From Methanomicrobium sp. W14 (GTDB lineage Archaea; Halobacteriota; Methanomicrobia; Methanomicrobiales; Methanomicrobiaceae): a stretch of 64,000 bases of DNA. The stretch spans positions 558,001 to 622,000 of the forward strand of contig NZ_JAGGMM010000001.1 in NCBI RefSeq assembly GCF_017875315.1. The letters run 5' to 3'. Of the stretch, positions 40,570 to 50,217 are shown one piece after another; within the stretch, counting starts at the first letter, position 1; each line of letters starts with the position of its first letter. A program made the translations under genes and the position numbers. A model generated the notes under the pieces. The model saw nothing but the letters and a program-made list of their open reading frames with translations. It was not told the DNA's origin and ran no database searches.

Positions 40570-41091
40570 ATAAATCCCTCTAACTAATATTCAATTTTAA
40601 CTCTATATATCACTTACAATCTTTGCAATGTAAACCCCGTAAATCATAGCTGATTCGTAATAACTGCCAATATTTAATCCTATTTTTAGGAACAAACATT
40701 TTTTTGCACAAAACTATCACACGTTAAACCACAGACATAGTCTTTCATATTTGAATATTTTATTAACGATTAAGTTATCTAATTTATTAGATCTCAACTA
40801 AAACAGTCATACATTTTGTTTTTTAAGATTTAAAGCACAATCCTGAGAGAGATATATCTTTTTTTGAAGTTTACAACGACAGCTATAAATTCCTGTTGAT
40901 ATGCCGGAGAACCAAATCAACTAAAAAATATTGTGTATGTGATATGTCTTATCAGGGCCTGATGGCTTGAAAAACAAAACTCCTCTCCGAAAAATCTGCG
41001 CAATGAAAACCCTTGTTTTTAATCTTACACTTTTTTCAGGAATAGCCGGATCACTTTATGACCATAAAATGACTATTAGAAAAAGGTTATC
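40570..41091. promoter_or_regulatory. Spacer before ech operon (left) and nitroreductase (right)
   Basis: About 520 AT-rich bases. The minus-side TATA-like run tatatatcac (about 40604-40613) lies about 40 bases before the echA start and is a plausible ech promoter. Further right, atcagggcctgat (40951-40963) is a perfect 13-base palindrome, about 130 bases before the nitroreductase ATG. There is no ORF of useful size and no RNA gene that I recognise. Confidence 0.4.
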
Positions 41092-41673
41092 ATGACTGCT
41101 GAAAACGAGGTAATATATGCAATTAAAAACCGGAGAAGCATCAGGTTTTTCAAAGAAAAGGAAGTCCCTGATGAAATTATCAAAGAGCTTATTGACTGCG
41201 GGATACACGCACCTTCAGCCCTTGCACTCTACCCGTGGAGATTTGCTGTAGTAAAAGACAAAAAACTGATGAAAAAAATTTCCGACTACGTAAGACCAGT
41301 TATAATCGACAGTCTTAAAAACGCTAAAACAGGTGGAATGACAAAAAAATACCTTGAGATGGCCGGTGAAAAAAACTTCTCCATATTTTACAACGCTTCC
41401 TGTCTTCTGCTTGTTCTCGGAAGGGACGATGCAATAAGAGCAGATATCGACTGTTCACTGTGCGCACAGAATATTATGCTTGCCGCACATTCCATCGGCC
41501 TTGGCACATGCTGGATAGGCTCAGCTGGTCATCTTGAAAAAAGCCGGGATTTAATGTCCAAACTAAAAATTCCTGAAGGTTATCACTTAGTTGCATCCAT
41601 TATCCTCGGTTACCCTGACGAAAAAAGGGAGATGCCAAAAAGAGAGAAACCTGAAATTGTCTGGATCAAATAA
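41092..41673 (+). CDS. Nitroreductase-family flavoprotein
   Basis: FMN-dependent oxidoreductase, 193 residues. The N-terminal NRRSIRFFKEKEVPDEIIKE and APSALALYPWRFAVV match the family phosphate-binding and substrate-gate regions; LGTCWIGSAGHLEKS and ILGYPDEKREMPKREKPE close the fold. The reduced substrate is unknown; in anaerobes it may be a quinone, a nitro compound or an F420-linked acceptor. A single gene with ATG start, separated from ech by a 520-base spacer. Confidence 0.85.
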   Translation: MTAENEVIYAIKNRRSIRFFKEKEVPDEIIKELIDCGIHAPSALALYPWRFAVVKDKKLMKKISDYVRPVIIDSLKNAKTGGMTKKYLEMAGEKNFSIFYNASCLLLVLGRDDAIRADIDCSLCAQNIMLAAHSIGLGTCWIGSAGHLEKSRDLMSKLKIPEGYHLVASIILGYPDEKREMPKREKPEIVWIK

Positions 41674-42128
41674 AAAAAATTGAATGACATCCCGTGCCCT
41701 GCAAAGATCCTACAACAACTGAAAAACAGCGGTTAAAAAGCAAAATCCTGTTTTTGACCTCGTATAAAACATTACAGAATTTATCAGGATTTACATTGCC
41801 ATTCCGTCTTTAAATAAGATAACCAGCTCCAGTTTTCCTTACTCCAACGTTTTAATAGTTCTTCTGTTTATATATCCTCCCCTTTTGGACATTCCGTGCG
41901 GTCAGCTCTCTCATATGAAGGTTGGACAGGCTTTTATCTGCTGAAAAATTCAGAAAAGAGCCCTGACCACAAAGGTCCGAACATTTATCAGTTAAAAAAG
42001 TCCTCTTCATATAAAATCACTTTTAATTCTCTATTCTCTTCAGCGATATCCAGCAGCAGTTCCTTCTTATACTTAACTTAAGAAATACTCCGGCACCGTG
42101 TTGGCAGGGTTTACATGATCTCCACATT
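41674..42128. other. Gene-poor spacer at the left edge of the accessory region
   Basis: About 450 bases between convergent genes, AT-rich, with several short T and A runs that could end transcription from both sides. The one ORF here (41896-42081) is Ser-rich and shows no family signal. Nothing else is supported. Confidence 0.3.
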
Positions 42129-42755
42129 TCAGTAAACCTGCCAAGTTGAAAAAGTTCCTGCAAATGCAAGGAACATGGCATATATTATCAGAACTGACAG
42201 GACAACAATTCCAATTGAAAATAACAGGCTCTTTTTAGAATAATCACGGAGAATATAGGATGCAATAAAAACCGACCAAATCAACCCGTATAATTGAAAA
42301 AAATAATTTATCACTGCAACTTCATAAGAAAGCCATTTCACAAAGGATACTATTAAGATGGCAATACTTTCTCCCACATACATAGGAATGACAAAGGCAG
42401 GAAAAGCAACACAGGAAACTTTAAGAGCCTTTTCAAAATCAAGGTTTATTTTGAACACCCTCATCAGACTATAGATTAAAACAGGAAAAACCGCTGAATA
42501 AAGTAGATATTTCAGGTGATCAACGAAGAATACACAAGAATGGAATGGCGCTAAATACGCATTTGGGAACGGCCCAAAATAGAATGAACAGAAAAAAATA
42601 GAGATCATGACTCCGAATGCAATAAATCCTGCTATTATCCAGTAGAGAACGGACTGTACCAGTCTTTCATTCCTGACTATATCAGCAGTCCGGGCCGGAG
42701 AGAAAAAAAGAAGAAATGTCCTCTTTAAAGCATTTTTGACAGATAATAAGATCAT
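42129..42755 (-). CDS. Yip1-like membrane protein
   Basis: A 208-residue protein with about five hydrophobic helices and the N-terminal pattern LLFFSPARTADIVRNE that is common before Yip1-type helices. The closing segment is hydrophobic, with no obvious catalytic residues. Its start overlaps the stop of the upstream ORF by one base, so the two share a transcript. Function is unknown; family assignment is by pattern only. Confidence 0.6.
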   Translation of the reverse strand: MILLSVKNALKRTFLLFFSPARTADIVRNERLVQSVLYWIIAGFIAFGVMISIFFCSFYFGPFPNAYLAPFHSCVFFVDHLKYLLYSAVFPVLIYSLMRVFKINLDFEKALKVSCVAFPAFVIPMYVGESIAILIVSFVKWLSYEVAVINYFFQLYGLIWSVFIASYILRDYSKKSLLFSIGIVVLSVLIIYAMFLAFAGTFSTWQVY

Positions 42756-43207
42756 TATTCTTCCTCATGACAGGGACCCCAGACGGGATCCCAGTTTATT
42801 ACGCCTGCAACCGTGAAGTCGGAGTCATCACTAATCTTATCCTGTTCCAATGCTGACTCTGAAGATCTCAATAATATTTGATATGGTTCTATCTTGTCAA
42901 CAATATTCCCTAATCCTGTAACCCGGGGGAGCCTTCCTCCTTTAGGTATTAAAGACAGGACATCAGATGAATAAACAACAGCACCAGCAATTTTCATTCC
43001 ACCTGATGGATAGCCCCAATGATATGTAAAAGCATTGACTTTTTGGCAATCAGTATTGATTCTGAATCGATAATCTAAATCAAATGATAATGTGTAGGTA
43101 TCATCCCGATAATTTTCCAACATGAACTCAGATACTTCAATATCTGTATGTACTAAATATCCAACTGAATCAGGATGAATTCCTGTTGAATTTAAAATAT
43201 TTCAAAA
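42755..43207 (-). pseudogene. Gene truncated at its 5' end next to the IS element
   Basis: The reading frame has an ATG at 43123 (122 residues) but stays open upstream to the TGA at about 43205-43207 (STGIHPDSVGYLVHTDIEVS), with no start codon. This is directly beside the left end of the IS at 43211. The protein is beta-rich, with WGYPSGGMKIAGAVVYSSD and a C-terminal INWDPVWGPCHEEE. The missing front may have held a signal peptide. I infer that the IS or an associated deletion removed the 5' part; a shorter functional ORF from 43123 remains possible. It is co-oriented and overlapping with the Yip1-like gene. Confidence 0.6.
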
Positions 43208-43210
43208 ATC

Positions 43211-44190
43211 GGCTCTGTAGAAACCCTTAATGACTTTTTTCAATGAGCATATTGTGAACGATAATTCTTGTCTTAATTTCTTTGAGTTGATTGTAATATT
43301 TCCTTGAGCGTAAAGTCTCTCCATACTTACGTTTAATCATCGAAAAAACGCATTCGACAAGATTTCTCTGCCCATATTTATTTAGATCAATATTTTCAAC
43401 CATTTCAAACCTGACTTCTCCGGAGTGGATCTTTCAGTCCCATTTTCTTACAGGAATTTGAGAATCTGCGCCGATATACCCCCTGATATATTCATGAATC
43501 CTTTCTGCATCATAGCCTTTATCCATCGTAAAACATTGGCTTTTTGTTACTCTTTGAGTCTGGTTGATCAATGATTTTACATGTTTTCTGTCATTTACCG
43601 GGAATTTTGAAAATTTCCAGCCCAGAACCAGCAAACTCTTTGAATCAACTGCAATTGACGTTTTTACAAAGCTCTTACGTGTTTTTCCGATGCGCTTTGA
43701 ATAATAATGGCTCGCATAATCACTGGTAAACCCGGTTGCATCAATTGATGTAATTGAGACTTTTTTCCCTTTCTGCAACAATTTTCTGATTGTTTTCGTT
43801 AAAATTTTAGCAAAAATCCGGGTAGGAAATCTTGAAAAAAATTTATGGAGAGTCGTGAAAGGAGGGATTTCCTGTAAGTTTAATAATTTCCGTATCGGGG
43901 TTAAAATCTCCAAAATGTCACAAAAATCGCGATAATTAACTCCTATTTCTTCCTTTAAAATGATTAGTGAGAGAAGCTGGTGATGGTTAAATTTCTTCCG
44001 GGAAAAAACAGATGACCGAAGAGGTACATTTGATTCCCTTATTATCTCCTGAGAGATTTTCACAAGATTGATGTACCTGTTCTGCGACATTTATTACGGA
44101 GTTCCTCTTTTATTTGTGGTTAAATAATATTGGAACTCCTGTACGATCGATCTTTCGGTCGCTATTTTATCAGAGGATTTCTACAAAGCC
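43211..44190 (-). mobile_element. IS5-like insertion sequence, about 980 bp
   Basis: Bounded by imperfect terminal inverted repeats: ggctctgtagaaaccct at 43211 and its partner ggctttgtagaaatcct read from 44190 on the opposite strand (15 of 17 match). The single gene inside, on the minus strand, is a DDE transposase of the IS5/IS4 type. No clean target-site duplication is visible: the left flank is a broken gene and the right flank another transposase remnant. This suggests later rearrangement or insertion into older IS material. Confidence 0.75.
43227..44090 (-). pseudogene. IS5-like transposase interrupted by one in-frame TGA
   Basis: The first 218 codons (44090 to 43437) read through a DDE transposase: DATGFTSDYASHYYSKR carries the first Asp and TMDKGYDAERIHEYIR the second. 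After the TGA at 43434-43436 the same frame continues without further stops: KIHSGEVRFEMVENID, then NLVECVFSMIKRKYGETLRS, which contains the final Glu motif, ending at TAA 43227. A CGA-to-TGA change (Arg in KWDRK) would explain it. The element is probably inactive unless read-through occurs. Confidence 0.8.
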
Positions 44191-44192
44191 CT

Positions 44193-44640
44193 AATTTTGC
44201 AATTCAAAATGAATATGAATGAATTGTTGGATTAGGAGATCGTTTGGGTGAAGTCTGTAAGATGATTGACTGGGAAAAATTTCGTCCTATTATAAAAGGA
44301 TTATACGCCAACAATACAGAAATGGATGGCCGACCTAATCTCGATGAAGTTCTGATGATCAAAATGATGGTTCTTCAGCAATGACACGGAATCTTCAGAA
44401 CCGGAACTTGAAAGACAGACTAATGACAGGATTTCATTCAGACAGTTCTTAGGATATCCGGAAAAGACCCCCGACAGATCTACCGTCTGGCTCTTTCGTG
44501 AAAGATTATCTGAATCAGGAAAAGACTCTTTTATCTCGAATGAATTACAGTACGGGTGAAAAATAAGTTCTCAGCATTTTGCTTTAACCTGTATCAGTTG
44601 AAGACAGTTAGTAAAAGAGCACTCTGGAGCGATAGCTGTG
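44193..44640 (+). pseudogene. Second IS5-family transposase remnant, stops, frameshift and deletion
   Basis: Conceptual text FAIQNEYE-stop-IVGLGDRLGEVCKMIDWEK, then NLDEVLMIKMMVLQQ-stop-HG, then after a one-base shift SEPELERQTNDRISFRQFLG and TVWLFRERLSESGKDS. This is the N-terminal third of a common IS5-type transposase. TGA codons stand at 44220 and 44382, and the shift falls near 44391. A short C-terminal echo, FNLYQLKTVSKRA (about 44583-44620), follows at once, so the catalytic core has been deleted. It abuts the right end of the neighbouring IS. Confidence 0.7.
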
Positions 44641-44940
44641 TAAAATTGAAAGATATATTCACAGAATAAGAGAAAAACTCAGAAGAAGGAAATCTTTGTA
44701 TTTATTGAATCGTTAAAATTGGGATAATAGTAATCCTCATTAGGTTTTATTTAGAGTGATTCTTATAAATGGTAGTTCGGGGTATTCCATAATGTTTAGT
44801 TATTTTTGATATGGGAGTCCTCCAGCTTGAAGTCATTTAATTTCATCTGATGAGATATCCGCTGATGGACTTAAGGCATCCTTAGGAATTATTGGTTTTA
44901 GCTTTGGGTTCTTCGGAGGTTTATTAGATGCTTTTTAGCA
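44641..44940. other. Spacer of decayed DNA between transposase remnant and direct repeat
   Basis: About 300 bases without a usable ORF. It is AT-rich and probably also IS-derived, but no family text could be recognised. No RNA gene was seen. Confidence 0.3.
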
Positions 44941-44969
44941 AACCCGCATGATGGGCGATCCCCATCACT

Positions 44970-45048
44970 CAAAGCCGATAAAAATCTAAAAAGTTTGTTG
45001 GAATCAGGACAAGAGATCTAAGGATCTGGATCCTGACTATTATAGCAA
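44970..45048. repeat. 79-bp direct repeat, copy 1
   Basis: Begins caaagccgataaaaatct and contains aagagatctaaggatctgga. It is about 92% identical to the copy at 45792-45870 and in the same orientation. Weaker similarity extends about 29 bases to the left in both copies (aacccgcatgat versus aacccacatgat). The pair brackets the methyltransferase gene at 45069-45731. Confidence 0.85.
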
Positions 45049-45068
45049 GAAGGAGCAGCAATAATTCT

Positions 45069-45731
45069 CTACCAAATTTTTGGGATTAGTCTCCATGTGT
45101 TCTTACAATAGTCCTGATATTGCTTCCCAAAATGCTTTAATAACGATTTTTCTTCAATAAATATTCTGTATCCGTATGTGCATATACAAATCGCTAAAAC
45201 TGCAAAAGGAGCTAATAATGTTCTCAATACAAAAGCAAATCCTAAAAGGGTGAGAATAGAACCAGCGTAGGCTGGGTGCCTTATGTATTGGTATGGACCA
45301 TTTCTTACCAGTGATTGATTTGTTTTTGTCATGACAGATAGTGTGAATGATTCTTTTAGCATCCAGATGGAAAAACACCTTAATGCAATTCCTCCAGCCA
45401 TCAGAAGAATACCAATCCAATAAAATATAGCCGTTAAACTAATATTGTAATTATCATGTATGAAAATGGCAGCATAGATACTAAAGAAAACTCCAAATAT
45501 TACAACATACATAGAACCATTATCTGAGCATTTTATTCTTTCTCCGGAATGTCGACTAAATGATGTCGTCATCAACCAGATCAACATTTCGGAGTCAATC
45601 CATATTATCAAAAGAAAATTCAATAGAGGATCATTTGTGAGTCGAATTACAATGCACAACGCTGATATCATGAATATTACTGAAAATAATAAAAGAAATT
45701 CCAGTTTATATTTTGTAAGACTTTGAGCCAC
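45069..45731 (-). CDS. Isoprenylcysteine carboxyl methyltransferase-like membrane protein
   Basis: A 220-residue integral membrane protein. The C-terminal half has the motif VRNGPYQYIRHPAYAG (about residues 144-159) and later EEKSLLKHFGKQYQDYCKNT, the standard SAM-binding signature of the ICMT/PEMT family. Hydrophobic helices fill residues 12-130. The substrate is unknown (lipid or small thiol). The gene is flanked by near-identical 79-bp direct repeats and sits among IS remnants, so it may have arrived as a cassette. Confidence 0.82.
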   Translation of the reverse strand: MAQSLTKYKLEFLLLFSVIFMISALCIVIRLTNDPLLNFLLIIWIDSEMLIWLMTTSFSRHSGERIKCSDNGSMYVVIFGVFFSIYAAIFIHDNYNISLTAIFYWIGILLMAGGIALRCFSIWMLKESFTLSVMTKTNQSLVRNGPYQYIRHPAYAGSILTLLGFAFVLRTLLAPFAVLAICICTYGYRIFIEEKSLLKHFGKQYQDYCKNTWRLIPKIW

Positions 45732-45791
45732 TCTTTATTATTCCACATAAGTATTTATATATTAAACCCACATGATAGTAATCTCATTGCA

Positions 45792-45870
45792 CAAAGCCGA
45801 TAAAAATCTACAAAGTTTGTTGAAATCAGGACAAGAGATCTAAGGATCTGGATCCTGATTTTCATAGCAA
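45792..45870. repeat. 79-bp direct repeat, copy 2
   Basis: Second copy of the repeat at 44970-45048, with about six mismatches. Start-to-start distance is 822 bases. It is followed by a G/C stem (ggggg at 45931 with ccccc at 45942) and then a transposase remnant. Confidence 0.85.
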
Positions 45871-45967
45871 CCAGTCAACTCCTGAATACAAAGCTGTTGT
45901 CACTGAACACGAATAGTAAATTACCTTCCAGGGGGACTCTGCCCCCGCTTAAAATGGATAGTGAATA

Positions 45968-46290
45968 ATGGTATCTATTAAAATAGGAGTTACACGGTTT
46001 GCCTGCGACCACAAGATCTATAATTCATTAAAAGTGGAAATGTCCCGATGTAATTCTTTACATATTCCTTCCGGAGGATTGATTGTTCATCTAAAGGCAT
46101 ATGGATTTATCAGAATTTTTGTAAAATTCAATAACGAAGTTCCACAATTCCGGGCAACGAGTGTTCCTGATATGAGTCCGGAAGAAAGGAACAGAATGAA
46201 TAAATTTGCATGGAAAATTAAAAACTTATTACAGAGCATTAAAACAATTCTGTGGAGTGGACAAATGCCAGGCCGGAAAGGAAGTCTCGC
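45968..46290 (+). pseudogene. Transposase C-terminal remnant (frameshifted)
   Basis: Reads SIKIGVTRFACDHKIYNSLK, GGLIVHLKAYGFIRIFVKFN and MSPEERNRMNKFAWKIK; then, after a shift near 46218, YYRALKQFCGVDKCQAGKEV. Together these resemble the end of a DDE transposase in which the last part has the W-x-I-E-x-Y-H-R-A-L-K-Q pattern. The catalytic front is missing. At about 46290 the text changes abruptly into the radical SAM duplicate. Confidence 0.65.
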
Positions 46291-46572
46291 AGAAAAGAGA
46301 AAACCTCAACTTTGAAGTGTTTAAAGAAGCTGTCAATAAGCATGGCTTCAGGTACCTCTCCCTTCATGGGTGGGGAGAACTGCTCCTCAACCCAAATCAT
46401 GCCAATATGATAAAATACGGTTCAGAGAAAGAAATTTTGGTTAATTTCACCACAAACACAACACTCATCAGGGAAAACACAAACTGCCCGGCTCAGGATC
46501 TGGAATTACCGCCTTCAGCCTCCCCGGCATTTCCATATTCACCCCGGAAAAAGAGTGCTGAAAGATTATTCA
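46291..46572 (+). pseudogene. Partial duplicate of the radical SAM gene
   Basis: Nucleotide homology to the intact-length copy at 48494-48775, offset 2203 bases. Shared protein text includes ENLNFEVFKEAVNKHGF, YLSLHGWGE, IKYGS and VNFTTN. It lacks the 5' part with the CxxxCxxC cluster, and its 3' half drifts (LPPSASPAFPYSPRKKS) and stops at TAG near 46588. Notably, at the place where the other copy has the frameshift, this one stays in frame (NPNHANMIKYG). Confidence 0.8.
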
Positions 46573-47142
46573 TCAAACCTGTTCGGTAGGAGGCGGCGTA
46601 GGAGATGTGCATATAAAAATCGTCCAACCGCGGATAACTTTTCCGTGTAGCGCTTTATTTTCAGGTGTGTAGTTGCGGATCCATACTACGACTCTTTTTT
46701 CACTGCTGTCAAGCTGAAAAGCTAAAATTTGCAGTTCAGGATCTTTCTTAAGTTCATCGATTTCATCCATTACAGCCTTTCTTTCATTTATATAATCCGT
46801 ATCAGGCTGTACCAGGACATTCCAGCCACCAATAGTTTTCCCTTCCAGCTCAGCGATCTGGTCATCATTCATATAAATCTCATAGAGAGTAATTTCTTTG
46901 TTTTCCTCATCTATTTCCCATCTCCTGACATTATACCCAAGTTCCATCGATTCAAGCTCATCATTTATCGTTTCATTCAGTTCTTCAAATGTCATATTTT
47001 CAACTACCTCCTCATTTTTATAGTTTTTATTTTCATAGAAAAAACCTGACAAAAACAGTACAATACAAATAACTGCCAGTATCGCTACGGCTGTGACGAT
47101 CGCAAGATGAGGATTTTTTTTTATTTCCTGTGTAAATTTCAT
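46573..47142 (-). CDS. Membrane-anchored protein with extracytoplasmic domain, unknown
   Basis: 189 residues. One hydrophobic segment (about residues 13-36) follows a short Lys-rich head, so it is a signal anchor. The outer domain is acidic and repeats a local pattern: EGKTIGGWNVLVQPD and HGKVIRGWTIFICTS, each ending a beta-rich unit of about 60-75 residues, so the domain may be an internal duplication. It ends in a Pro/Thr tail. The family is not recognised. It lies just downstream of the Cys-rich ORF on the same strand. Confidence 0.65.
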   Translation of the reverse strand: MKFTQEIKKNPHLAIVTAVAILAVICIVLFLSGFFYENKNYKNEEVVENMTFEELNETINDELESMELGYNVRRWEIDEENKEITLYEIYMNDDQIAELEGKTIGGWNVLVQPDTDYINERKAVMDEIDELKKDPELQILAFQLDSSEKRVVVWIRNYTPENKALHGKVIRGWTIFICTSPTPPPTEQV

Positions 47143-47160
47143 TTATTACTCATCCCCCAC

Positions 47161-47834
47161 TTACCCGACAGTAACATCGCCATTTTTATCGATCAGAAAA
47201 GTTACAATAACATCTGAAGGCTCATACGTATCACAACTCCTGATCCCTATCACTTTATATATGATCACTTTAGTATCACACACATCCGATCCCTTTGGCA
47301 TCTGCCAGTTGCCTATTTGAATATCGGGGTTGTCATACTGGAAAAATGTCCAATTACCCCAATCCTTTTTACTTCCACTACCTGTATTATCATTATATTC
47401 GGCGCAAACCTCATGACCGAACGTTTTATCGGGATGGTCCGGATCAGGGCAGTCATTTTCTATCAAAACACAATAGATGTCCAGCTCATAAATCTTGGTA
47501 TTCAGGTCCAGGTAACAATACTCCGGGCAACCAGACTTCTCCATCCAGTAGCAGCTACTAAGCGTATTGGCAAAGTCCGTACTTTTACCTGCCCAGGCAT
47601 AGCGTATTATAGCATTCTCAAAGCATACGGCATCATTCCATGAACCCGAACCTCCGCCACAGTCTGAACTACCACAGCGGTAATAGAGAATCTGATTAAA
47701 AGCCGTAAGGTATGGACCGCAGTTAGACGGAACATGACAATCCGGCACCTCAGAGACATCCCAGTCCCACCAAGTGCTTCCTGCCCCGTTTCTCCATCGC
47801 CCCAATAGCAACTCTCTGAATATTCCTGTCATGG
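47161..47834 (-). CDS. Cysteine-rich protein, start uncertain, probably truncated
   Basis: The frame is open from 48009, but only the last about 190 residues look real. They hold many Cys and aromatic residues: STWWDWDVSEVPDCHVPSNC, RCGSSDCGGGSGSWNDAVC, SSCYWMEKSGCPEYCYLD and CAEYNDNTGSGSK. Above about 47820 the frame is the shadow of the P-loop gene. An ATG at 47834 (MTGIFRELLLGRW) is a candidate start, but no signal peptide is visible, so the original front may have been lost. The Cys pattern suggests a disulfide-bonded outside protein; function unknown. Confidence 0.5.
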
Positions 47835-48277
47835 AAATAATCCCTGAAATCCATAGGGCTGCACTCGCTCTTTCCGCCTTCAGGAATCCAGTTGTCTTCA
47901 AAGTATTTGAGAATGTAATCATCCCATGAACCAAGATGCTCCGAAGAAATAACCTCATTGACATTATCAAAGAGTTGAAGATATGCAATATCCACGGGTG
48001 ATTTGCCAAGAGTTATCTCCATCAGATAAATGTCAAACCCTGTCGGGACCCATCTCTCAAACTCCGCCTTGCTTGCCGCCGCTTCAAGAGGAATGGAATA
48101 GTGGTAGATATTTTTCTTAATATAGGGCTTGAAATCATTCTGCCCTTTGTTTGCCTGAATGCACGCTACTTTGTATCCCTTACCGCTGAAATGGTTGTAC
48201 AGTTTGAGTATCAGTTTCGTTTTCCCCTGTTCAGGGACTGAAGAAAATACGTAAATTTTTGGATATGATAACGTCAT
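47750..48277 (-). CDS. P-loop NTPase of CobB/dethiobiotin-synthetase style, possibly cut at the 3' end
   Basis: A 175-residue protein starting MTLSYPKIYVFSSVPEQGKT. The first loop is a degenerate Walker A (SSVPEQGKT), as in CobQ/CobB/BioD-like enzymes. GYKVACIQANKG and DIYLMEITLGKSPVD follow as switch and Walker B-like regions. The end (AMEKRGRKHLVGLGCL) is short and overlaps the Cys-rich frame by about 85 bases, so the natural C-terminus may be lost. It is divergent from the radical SAM gene 113 bases away. Function unknown. Confidence 0.6.
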   Translation of the reverse strand: MTLSYPKIYVFSSVPEQGKTKLILKLYNHFSGKGYKVACIQANKGQNDFKPYIKKNIYHYSIPLEAAASKAEFERWVPTGFDIYLMEITLGKSPVDIAYLQLFDNVNEVISSEHLGSWDDYILKYFEDNWIPEGGKSECSPMDFRDYFHDRNIQRVAIGAMEKRGRKHLVGLGCL

Positions 48278-48390
48278 TTTGCCCCACCACAGATTATAAT
48301 ATATAATAAAATAGTAATATTAATTATTACTTTAGTTATAAAAATTAATTTAACAAGACACGCTGATACCCTGGGGACACATGATGATGA
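48278..48390. promoter_or_regulatory. Divergent promoter between P-loop and radical SAM genes
   Basis: 113 AT-rich bases. Two-sided TATA-like runs occur (ataatatataataaaa about 48296-48311, and ttataaaaattaattt about 48335-48350). The second lies about 45 bases before the radical SAM ATG (48391). Confidence 0.4.
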
Positions 48391-49225
48391 GTGATGTATA
48401 ATATAAATAATAAAATACCCCCAATCCTGCAGGTCGAACCCTCAACGGACTGCAACCTCGACTGCCCGTTCTGCCTAAGAAAGAAATACTCACAAAAAGG
48501 AGAAAACCTCAACTTTGAAGTGTTTAAAGAAGCTGTCAATAAACACGGTTTCAGTTACCTCTCTCTTCACGGGTGGGGAGAGCCCCTTCTCAACCCGCGC
48601 CTTTTTTGATATAATAAAATACGGTTCAGGGAAAGGGATCTCTGTTAATTTCACCACAAACGCAACACTAGTTAAAGAAAATACAAATGAACTGCTCGGT
48701 TCAGGACTTGAGATCGTCGCATTTAGTCTCCCCGACATATTAATGTTCACCCCTGAGATCAGGCATAACATAGAACATTTCATAACATGCAGAAACAGCA
48801 GCAGAAAGCCTGATTCTCCAAAAACATACATCAATGCCGCACTGATGGAGAGGAACTTCGACACCGTAGAGAAGGTTCTCTCTGTTTCAAAGGAGCTTGG
48901 TGTGGATGCCATAAACTTCGAGAGGTCGTATCCGTGGAGACCGGAATATACCGAAAAAGAAGAGACAATCTTTAAGAAGATAACAGATGCAGCAGAAAAA
49001 ACTGATTGTAAAGTCGTAGTTCCACTGCCCCATACCCTCCCCTGCAGGCTCTTCAATACTACCCTCTTCATGAGGTGGAACGGCGACATAACGCCGTGCT
49101 GCTACAGGCCGGATCACGTACTGGGTAATATAATGAAAGACGATTTTGATGACATAATATCCAAAAGAGAAAAATTCTGGAAAAACATGGCCACAGACCA
49201 GGTGTGCACCTCATGCGGGATTTAA
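48391..49225 (+). pseudogene. Radical SAM/SPASM-like protein, frameshifted in a T run
   Basis: Radical SAM enzyme with C-terminal SPASM/twitch-like cysteines. The start MMYNINNKIPPILQVEPSTD leads to the cluster motif CNLDCPFC. The first frame ends at TGA just after LLNPRLF (48609). The continuation DIIKYGSGKGISVNFTTN in the shifted frame runs to TAA 49225 and contains RWNGDITPCCYRPDHVLGN and VCTSCGI. Removing one T from the six T at 48602-48607 would restore one frame of about 277 residues. This could be a true mutation, a slippery switch or a base-calling error. Confidence 0.75.
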
Positions 49226-49475
49226 GATCTAATCTCATGTAAATCCGGCATCATACAGTTACTCCACCGGGGCAAAATGAAAAAATCCATCAAAGGTAAG
49301 CTTTAGTGTAAAACATGGGCTTTGAATCAGTGAAGTTGACACCTGCCCGCCCCTGGAAAATAACAATAATTCTCAGAACTTTTACAGAAAGCTTCAGACT
49401 ACAATAAATAAGTTATTCAGACAGCTCTCCTTTAAAACTATTCTGAATATTCAAAAAAAAAACTAAAAAGAAAAA

Positions 49476-49925
49476 TTACAGAGTCTCATCTGTAATTATC
49501 TGGACACTCACAATATCATGCTGGCGTTCGGCAAGTTTGTTTGCCTTAAAGATATTCTTTCCGCCCTTGCCTATTGCGATTCCCCTGTCTTCTTCCTCAA
49601 CATCGACAGTTGCAACATATTCGCCGTTTTCATTCTCTTCGATGTTTACGGTAAGAACACGTGCAGGCAAAAAGCAGTTCTTTATAAACTGCTCGGGGTC
49701 GTTTGAAAATTCAACGACTTCTATCTTTTTGCCGAGGTCTTCGGATGCCTTCTTTATGCTTGAACCCTGCTTTCCTATAGCACGTCCCATATCCCCGGGG
49801 TTGATGACAAAAATAAGACGATCGTTTCTTTCGTCAACTATACAGTCACGGCTTCCTGCACCGGTGATATCCTCAAATTGTTTCATCAACTGAAGACTCT
49901 GTTCGTTTAATACAATTTCTCCCAT
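49476..49925 (-). CDS. nusA: Archaeal NusA-like transcription factor
   Basis: 149-residue, two-KH RNA-binding protein. KH loops are GRAIGKQGSSIKKAS and GIAIGKGGKNIFKAN. It is linked to transcription elongation or termination in archaea. It lies 4 bases downstream of rpl30e and is the last gene of the rpo operon in this window. Confidence 0.92.
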   Translation of the reverse strand: MGEIVLNEQSLQLMKQFEDITGAGSRDCIVDERNDRLIFVINPGDMGRAIGKQGSSIKKASEDLGKKIEVVEFSNDPEQFIKNCFLPARVLTVNIEENENGEYVATVDVEEEDRGIAIGKGGKNIFKANKLAERQHDIVSVQIITDETL

Positions 49926-49929
49926 GTAA

Positions 49930-50217
49930 TTAAACCCTCTTCAATGACAGGATATCGGAATCTCCTGCATCAACAATTGCAAGAGCACTTACAAAATGCG
50001 GTCTTCCACATGACATTCCAAGTGCCTTACTGGAGTCTTCGTATGTATATGAGAATACATCCTGATCTTTAAGATATGAAATAAATTCATCAGGACAGTT
50101 GTCTGCTACGACAACCATCTGTGCTTTACCCTCTGAGATACAATCTTTTGTTTCTTTCTGGCCGATTACTACATTGCCAGATTTAATTGCGCGTCTGAGA
50201 GACGTTTCGAAATCCAT
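49930..50217 (-). CDS. rpl30e: Ribosomal protein eL30-like (L30e)
   Basis: 95-residue protein of the L7Ae/L30e RNA-binding fold. KSGNVVIGQKETKDCISEGK and MVVVADNCPDEFISYLKDQ are typical. It sits between rpoA'' and nusA, the standard archaeal position. Confidence 0.9.
   Translation of the reverse strand: MDFETSLRRAIKSGNVVIGQKETKDCISEGKAQMVVVADNCPDEFISYLKDQDVFSYTYEDSSKALGMSCGRPHFVSALAIVDAGDSDILSLKRV

What the first reader, a model, noticed from the sequence alone, without database searches (positions are those of the whole stretch)
46573..49225. Unknown locus: radical SAM, P-loop NTPase, Cys-rich protein, anchored outer protein
The divergent radical SAM/SPASM gene and a CobB-like P-loop gene flank an ORF rich in Cys and Trp and a membrane-anchored protein with an internal repeat. 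A maturase, an energy-using partner and a Cys-rich target would be a plausible peptide- or protein-modification system, though the locus is partly decayed here.
Basis: inference. Interest (0 to 1): 0.52.

Follow-up and report, generated by a model that had tools for sequence, protein, structure and literature searches.

The report
Decayed archaeal radical-SAM and NTPase cassette
The window holds the broken remains of a gene cassette that intact relatives in methane-metabolising archaea carry whole, and some of those relatives pair a radical enzyme with proteins whose front ends repeat a tryptophan pattern that resembles the target of known peptide-crosslinking enzymes.

Summary
The four ORFs exist, but two are misread. 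The P-loop ORF and the 'Cys-rich' ORF are halves of two neighbouring genes fused out of frame by a deletion near 47790. The radical SAM gene (rSAM-A) is frameshifted, and a second rSAM-A fragment lies at 46276-46548. Only the membrane-anchored gene looks intact.

Relatives confirm a real cassette: P-loop NTPase (~350 aa, SIMIBI fold by AlphaFold/Foldseek), then a partner protein without a hydrophobic N-terminus, then anchored and propeller proteins. P-loop, Cys-rich and anchored genes lie consecutively in several genera.

Another radical SAM family (rSAM-B) completes four-gene operons in G015 and G420. In 8 of 8 P-loop loci with rSAM-B the partner begins with W-x-(D/N/E) units (MGWGDWGNWSDV...); in 16 of 17 without it, it does not. 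The exception has a truncated P-loop gene. The change needs at least two events on the P-loop tree. The pattern resembles substrates of three-residue-cyclophane ('triceptide') enzymes, but at the front of 130-743 aa proteins.

No chemistry was tested. The Cys-rich domain's fold stays unknown.

The parts
48391..49225 (+). rSAM-A: radical SAM/SPASM gene, frameshifted near 48605 (pieces 48391-48609 and 48611-49225)
   Evidence: Radical_SAM 23.6 bits (below the 29.5 cut-off) on the first piece, SPASM 35 bits on the second; homologue in G037 about 83% identical, divergent from its P-loop gene
46276..46548 (+). degenerate partial second copy of rSAM-A, same orientation, on the other side of the unit
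   Evidence: blastn 77.7% over 278 bp to 48479-48756; HMM E 4e-30
47789..48277 (-). 5' half of the SIMIBI P-loop NTPase gene (about residues 1-163 of ~350)
   Evidence: 85% identity to G037 over 1-169, whose ORF goes on to 352 aa; junction read from DNA
47161..47790 (-). 3' part of the Ig-like/Cys-rich-domain gene, fused out of frame to the P-loop half by deletion
   Evidence: homologues match from about query residue 67 on; HMM E 2e-79
46573..47142 (-). membrane-anchored repeat protein (TM family), apparently intact
   Evidence: alignment A2, 23-36% identity to six homologues; directly downstream of the Cys-rich gene in relatives; internal repeat

Best explanation
The window carries a decayed copy of an archaeal 'tagged-partner' cassette. 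Intact, a SIMIBI-class NTPase is translated as a pair with the gene behind it, a partner protein without a signal peptide that starts either with a Trp-rich tag or with MGGGG/MGxPPxPPVV and Ig-like repeats; anchored repeat proteins and beta-propellers for the cell surface follow. Where the radical SAM enzyme rSAM-B is present, it most likely modifies the W-x-(D/N/E) units of the partner's N-terminus, probably by crosslinking Trp i to residue i+2 as three-residue-cyclophane enzymes do, while the NTPase handles (chaperones or delivers) the partner. Shown by sequence: gene sets, tight coupling, the rSAM-B/tag covariation, the NTPase fold class, lack of hydrophobic N-termini on partners, and the deletion, frameshift and duplicate in the window. 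Inferred: the modification, its chemistry, the NTPase's role, surface function. In the window the unit no longer encodes a whole NTPase or partner, so it is probably inactive.
For: Full-length NTPase homologues. AlphaFold2 pLDDT 90.6; residues 1-178 match Ffh/SRP54 G domains, Z 11.8, also FtsY, FlhF, ParF, GPN. Partner ATG 0-4 nt behind the P-loop stop, with a GGAGG sequence in the P-loop's last codons. rSAM-B beside or in the operon of 8 of 25 distinct P-loop loci; W tag in the partner in 8 of 8 (one with a single W), and in 1 of the other 17, whose P-loop gene is 5'-truncated. P-loop tree: at least two changes of state, L055/L056 nested among tag-less loci. Of 86 W in tags, 41 have D/N at +2 (47.7%) against 11.1% of 3,584 W in control ORFs. 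rSAM-B without a P-loop gene is also followed by such tags (L183, L184, L189, L190, L191, L192). Tested partner proteins: 27 of 27 lack an N-terminal hydrophobic segment (max KD17 1.96); 16 of 16 other proteins tested have one (2.24 or more). A propeller of one operon ends in PGF-CTERM, an archaeal surface-sorting motif (its meaning recalled). OscB joins Trp to the C-beta of Asn/Asp at i+2 (passages of PMC11002830).
Against: The window itself has neither rSAM-B (0 in its genome) nor a readable partner N-terminus, so the tag story rests on relatives. rSAM-B is far below the cut-off of every known cyclophane-forming model listed (e.g. 50.6 bits against 310 for GrrM/OscB). Of 23 rSAM-B genes or remnants, 13 have a clear tag next to them, 3 a weak one and 7 none. 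Relatedness of loci inflates the association; only two independent changes are shown. W-x-x-W ladders also occur in proteins without crosslinks (recalled). One NTPase (L065) carries a Tat signal, which a purely cytosolic role does not explain. The P-loop gene is rare (14 of 392 genomes of the phylum).
Confidence: 0.5

Rival explanations
1. Dedicated targeting or export system: the SIMIBI NTPase works like SRP54/FtsY/Get3-type factors and brings signal-less partners to the envelope; the Trp tag is its recognition motif or an aromatic ladder and is not modified; rSAM-B has another job.
For: Closest folds are the targeting GTPases; partners lack, and downstream proteins have, hydrophobic N-termini; Cys-rich domains outside the P-loop operons have signal peptides (L053, L150, L158, L159); one NTPase has a Tat signal.
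Against: Tags follow rSAM-B also where no P-loop gene is present (L183, L184, L189-L192), and most P-loop loci have no tag (16 of 25), so the tag goes with rSAM-B, not with the NTPase.
Confidence: 0.25
2. Cofactor or metal insertion: a MobB/HypB-like NTPase and a radical SAM of the tungsten-oxidoreductase-maturase kind build or insert a metal centre into a Cys-rich protein.
For: Best NCBIfam match of the intact rSAM-A is TIGR04317 (99 bits) and TIGR04311 appears; weak MobB match; several P-loop loci lie beside ABC-transporter parts or a CobN-type chelatase gene.
Against: All those matches are far below cut-off; rSAM-A occurs in 4 of 120 genomes of the order against 12 with the P-loop gene; the cysteines of the domain are only partly conserved (C50 16/16 but C85 14/17).
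Confidence: 0.12
3. No functional system: fast-rearranging accessory surface genes among insertion sequences, whose neighbours in the window are accidental.
For: Deletion fusion, frameshift, partial duplicate and transposase remnants here; a second truncated P-loop gene in the same genome; a similar P-loop/Cys-rich fusion in G112.
Against: Same gene order in several genera; anchored gene in 9 of 9 genomes of the order with the true Cys-rich domain; rSAM-B/tag covariation.
Confidence: 0.1

Closest known systems
Triceptides and their three-residue-cyclophane-forming radical SAM enzymes (XncB, OscB/GrrM, MscB, YxdB, YhhB)
   Same: Radical SAM gene beside a protein with repeated aromatic-x-(D/N/E) units; W-x-N/D and Y-x-D are known substrates (passages of PMC11002830 section 16)
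   Different: Archaeal; enzyme far below the known family cut-offs; units at or near the N-terminus of 130-743 aa proteins instead of small precursor peptides; SIMIBI NTPase partner. The window's own radical SAM is another family and its partner's N-terminus is lost.
SIMIBI NTPases (SRP54, FtsY, FlhF, ParA/ParF, GPN)
   Same: Predicted fold of residues 1-178, Walker A GxGKTT
   Different: C-terminal ~170 residues with CYQP and CNGWVLPQY motifs unassigned; no Pfam or NCBIfam match of the full-length proteins scanned
TIGR04317 tungsten cofactor oxidoreductase radical SAM maturase
   Same: Best-scoring model for the window-type radical SAM
   Different: 99 bits for the intact relative against a cut-off of 380; the oxidoreductase was not looked for

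Membership tests
Triceptide (three-residue cyclophane) system, for rSAM-B relatives | Radical SAM enzyme with CxxxCxxC and a C-terminal Cys set for an auxiliary cluster | tested here: met
   A7: C12/C16/C19 plus C215, C233, C268 invariant; Radical_SAM 64-83 bits in the four rSAM-B proteins scanned, no SPASM match in them
Triceptide (three-residue cyclophane) system, for rSAM-B relatives | Enzyme belongs to a known cyclophane-forming family | tested here: not met
   GrrM/OscB 50.6 of 310 bits, YhhB 46.7 of 445, FxsB 44.1 of 370 for L046
Triceptide (three-residue cyclophane) system, for rSAM-B relatives | Neighbouring substrate with aromatic-x-(D/N/S/R) motif | tested here: met
   13 of 23 rSAM-B genes or remnants clear, 3 weak; D/N at W+2 in 41 of 86
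Triceptide (three-residue cyclophane) system, for rSAM-B relatives | Substrate is a short precursor peptide | tested here: not met
   Complete partners of 130-743 aa, some with conserved domains
Triceptide (three-residue cyclophane) system, for rSAM-B relatives | C-C crosslink between residues i and i+2 | not testable with these tools
   needs mass spectrometry and NMR
SIMIBI-class NTPase (P-loop gene) | Walker A and SIMIBI fold of the N-terminal domain | tested here: met
   GxGKT in most rows, GKI in L043/L046; Z 11.8, rmsd 3.5, 149 aligned to 2ng1
MobB (PF03205 / TIGR00176) | Score above the curated cut-off | tested here: not met
   15.9 of 26.6 bits and 15.8 of 76.2, window half; no match of the full-length homologues scanned
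TIGR04317 W_rSAM_matur (window rSAM-A) | Score above the curated cut-off | tested here: not met
   99 of 380 bits for the intact relative
Papain/C39-like or transglutaminase-like hydrolase (Cys-rich domain) | Recognisable fold or profile match | tested here: inconclusive
   No Pfam match, hhalign probability 0.1 to one C39_2 protein, AlphaFold pLDDT 43; Cys, Asn and His near-invariant (C50 16/16, N53 16/16, H136 17/17)

The most novel reading that the evidence does not exclude
Archaea of several lineages (Methanoculleus, Methanoregula, Methanospirillum, Methanolobus, Archaeoglobus, Methanophagales) cap the N-terminus of diverse proteins with a chain of Trp-x-Asp/Asn cyclophanes made by a new radical SAM family, and a SIMIBI NTPase co-translated with the target recognises the cap or the tag and delivers the protein to the cell surface: RiPP-type chemistry used as an N-terminal tag on proteins. 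The window is a lineage that lost or replaced the tagging enzyme and is losing the rest.
Probability: 0.3. Interest if true: 0.85.

Novelty: new variant of a known kind. Interest (0 to 1): 0.55.

Why it matters
If true, radical SAM crosslinking, known from small peptides, would be an N-terminal modification of proteins in methane-cycling archaea, with its own NTPase. It gives a radical SAM family, an NTPase family, a Cys-rich domain and a repeat family, none with a specific Pfam or NCBIfam family in these scans, a joint testable role, and predicts the substrate from the first ~20-60 residues.

Tried and rejected
CobB/MobB: below cut-off, rejected as membership. Defence-system reading: PADLOC gave only the viperin-type match of both radical SAM proteins, nothing for the NTPase, Cys-rich, Ig-like or anchored proteins. 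Mobile-element reading: no P-loop relative in viral contigs or plasmids, no Cys-rich relative in plasmids, no rSAM-B in plasmids, one 24%-identical phage record. Rfam: nothing in 41000-50000. Cys-rich domain as papain/C39/transglutaminase: suggested by near-invariant Cys/His and by a transglutaminase-like domain in a protein that also holds the C-terminal half of the domain (L150), but no test supports it; the AlphaFold model is unusable. Literature: seven searches of the held PMC library gave listings only; nothing seen in titles and abstract starts describes this cassette. From PMC11002830 only the passages were read. The reading of rSAM-A as a peptide crosslinker was dropped: no tag covaries with it; the two P-loop loci of G037 that hold rSAM-A have partners starting MCGP, too few to use. 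The names archaeosortase, C-mannosylation and thrombospondin-type W ladders are recalled. A longer alternative GTG start in L040 would put a WRW stretch before MGNPPP; not counted as a tag.

Counting choices: of the 26 entries, L154 repeats L067 (25 distinct). L041/L054, L036/L057, L043/L062, L044/L063, L058/L153, L059/L155, L060/L156, L055/L148, L066/L149, L068/L157 are the same places under two names (judged from contig lengths and sequences). The G037 'match' of the Cys-rich query is P-loop DNA and was removed from the 10 of 120 (9 left). The control ORFs include the tag proteins and duplicate loci, and the tag stretches were chosen by me. The 23 rSAM-B places include fragments and short contigs (L182 twice, L183 second copy, L185, L186, L188, L193 without a tag; weak: L064, L160, L187).

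Full report
What is in the window. The window is an archaeal chromosome stretch (G000:C1:558001-622000, 2.54 Mb in 6 contigs). A near relative in the same family, G091, is named Methanomicrobiaceae through the matching contig of L063. Between insertion-sequence remnants and RNA-polymerase genes lie, left to right, a radical SAM (rSAM-A) fragment, an anchored protein, a Cys-rich half-gene, a P-loop half-gene and rSAM-A. The P-loop ORF (175 aa) matches 85% to residues 1-169 of a G037 protein whose open frame goes on. The 'Cys-rich' ORF matches other genomes mostly only from about residue 67-87 on. The DNA shows why: after ATGGAGAAA of the P-loop gene the sequence continues as the end of an Ig-like repeat and the Cys-rich domain, in another frame. 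A deletion removed the rest of the P-loop gene and the start of its neighbour. G112 has a similar fusion, in frame, with another joint. The rSAM-A gene is frameshifted near 48605 and its 5' part is repeated at 46276-46548 in the same orientation. The anchored gene looks intact, with two internal repeats.

The intact cassette. Full-length P-loop proteins are about 350 aa and occur in 12 of 120 genomes of the order and 14 of 392 of the phylum. Named carriers include Methanoculleus, Methanoregula, Methanospirillum, Methanomethylovorans, Methanolobus, Methanococcoides, Methanophagales and Archaeoglobus MAGs or strains, plus one record titled Marinimicrobia that looks like contamination (last point inferred). 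AlphaFold2 gives pLDDT 90.6; residues 1-178 fit SRP54/FtsY-type G domains, Z 11.8, with FlhF, ParF and GPN behind: a SIMIBI NTPase. The C-terminal half, with CYQP and CNGWVLPQY motifs, is unassigned.

Directly behind the P-loop stop (0-4 nt; the last codons carry GGAGG) starts a partner gene. Partners are modular: Ig-like repeats alone, Ig-like plus the Cys-rich domain, the Cys-rich domain alone, or other domains. Of the partner proteins tested, 27 of 27 lack a hydrophobic N-terminus, while 16 of 16 other proteins tested (anchored, propellers, and four Cys-rich-domain proteins outside P-loop operons) have one. Propellers are PD40-type, one with a PGF-CTERM. The Cys-rich domain and the anchored family belong together: in the order sample, 9 of 9 genomes with the true Cys-rich domain also have the anchored family, and in G338 and G180 both are one protein.

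Two radical SAM families. rSAM-A, the window family, was found in 4 of 120 genomes of the order. In the window, in both G037 P-loop loci and in G000:C3 it lies beside the cassette or its remains (Ig-like fragment E 1e-17, Yip1-type E 4e-34, propeller E 3e-40 against cassette genes); in G060 and G063 it lies beside other membrane genes. rSAM-B (about 276 aa, alignment A7) overlaps or adjoins the P-loop gene, or lies in its operon, in 8 of 25 distinct P-loop loci, and was found in 16 of 392 genomes of the phylum. Of the 14 P-loop genomes, four (G015, G163, G295, G420) have rSAM-B; the window's genome has none at E 1e-30.

The tag. In all 8 rSAM-B P-loop loci the partner starts with aromatic-x-(D/N/E/S) units: MGWGEWGDWSDYC (L060), MGWGDWGNWSDVPC (L068), MGWISWGNWNDWGEWSDV (L065), MGGGGWSNWGDWANV (L043), MGGGGWSDWGNWANCC plus Cys-rich domain (L046), MGWAEYADVC and MGWADWADVNC plus Cys-rich domain (L055, L056); L064 has a single W (MGWDE). 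Of 17 loci without rSAM-B, 16 have no W in the first 20 residues; the exception, L152, has a 5'-truncated P-loop gene behind a transposase-like ORF (the transposase reading is mine). On the P-loop tree the state changes at least twice; the L055/L056 pair sits inside a tag-less clade with 100/100 support. rSAM-B without a P-loop gene is also followed by tags: L183, L189 and L192 (behind a leader with RWERWRA or a remnant of it), L184, L190 and L191. Over 23 rSAM-B genes or remnants, 13 have a clear tag, 3 a weak one, 7 none. D or N stands at W+2 in 41 of 86 tag Trp, against 11.1% of 3,584 Trp in control ORFs. A filter for two W-x(1,2)-[D/N] units within 8 residues in the first 70 passes 21 of 941 ORFs, 16 of them tag genes (4 duplicates), 5 not.

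Mechanism. Three-residue-cyclophane enzymes join Trp to the C-beta of residue i+2, Asn or Asp for OscB (PMC11002830, passages). The repeated W-x-D/N grammar beside a radical SAM gene makes such crosslinks the simplest reading for rSAM-B loci. It is not shown, and rSAM-B is no member of the known families; its nearest solved relatives are SkfB and 5wgg, a 'Radical SAM domain protein'. The NTPase's role, targeting or chaperoning of the partner, is inferred from fold and coupling. A Tat signal on one NTPase (L065, 24.3 bits over a cut-off of 22.7) remains unexplained.

Verdict for the window. The window copy is a broken, rSAM-A-associated version; whether its partner had a tag cannot be known because that end is deleted. 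Novelty rests on relatives: none of the seven literature searches (listings, plus passages of one paper) showed this cassette, in a library that lacks most subscription journals.

Noticed in passing
L194:6864-7979, L195:6795-7982, L196:2680-4170: Viral contigs encode a 371-496 aa protein with dozens of Cys-x(2,3)-Cys repeats (two of them also with DWSGDYSD), just upstream of two or three radical SAM genes, one distantly related to rSAM-B.
   Followed up: partly
L190:3314-7029 and L191:5093-6960: rSAM-B-like gene followed by a protein starting with up to ten W-x(1,2)-D units (743 aa in L190) among small genes that look viral or plasmid-like; the 743 aa protein has no Pfam match.
   Followed up: partly
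L189:2808-3827, L187:3-1055, L160:9962-10891: A third radical SAM gene with a Tat-like N-terminus lies directly upstream of rSAM-B (TAT_signal at 21.6 of 22.7 bits in L160, no TAT_signal match at E 0.01 in L189).
   Followed up: no
L040:4226-7987; L045:11195-15661: P-loop cassettes repeatedly neighbour large ORFs of one cluster, in L040 a CobN-type chelatase (1190 bits), and transport genes, in L045 a periplasmic binding protein.
   Followed up: partly
window 44940-45048 and 45764-45870: About 109 bp direct repeat, 86% identical, on either side of a methyltransferase-like gene.
   Followed up: no
G000:C1:494301-495068 (L037:8215-9081): Second, 3'-truncated P-loop gene in the same genome, near insertion-sequence genes.
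   Followed up: partly
L150:8524-11013: 829 aa secreted protein with PEGA repeats, a transglutaminase-like domain, the C-terminal half of the Cys-rich domain and the anchored-family repeat.
   Followed up: partly
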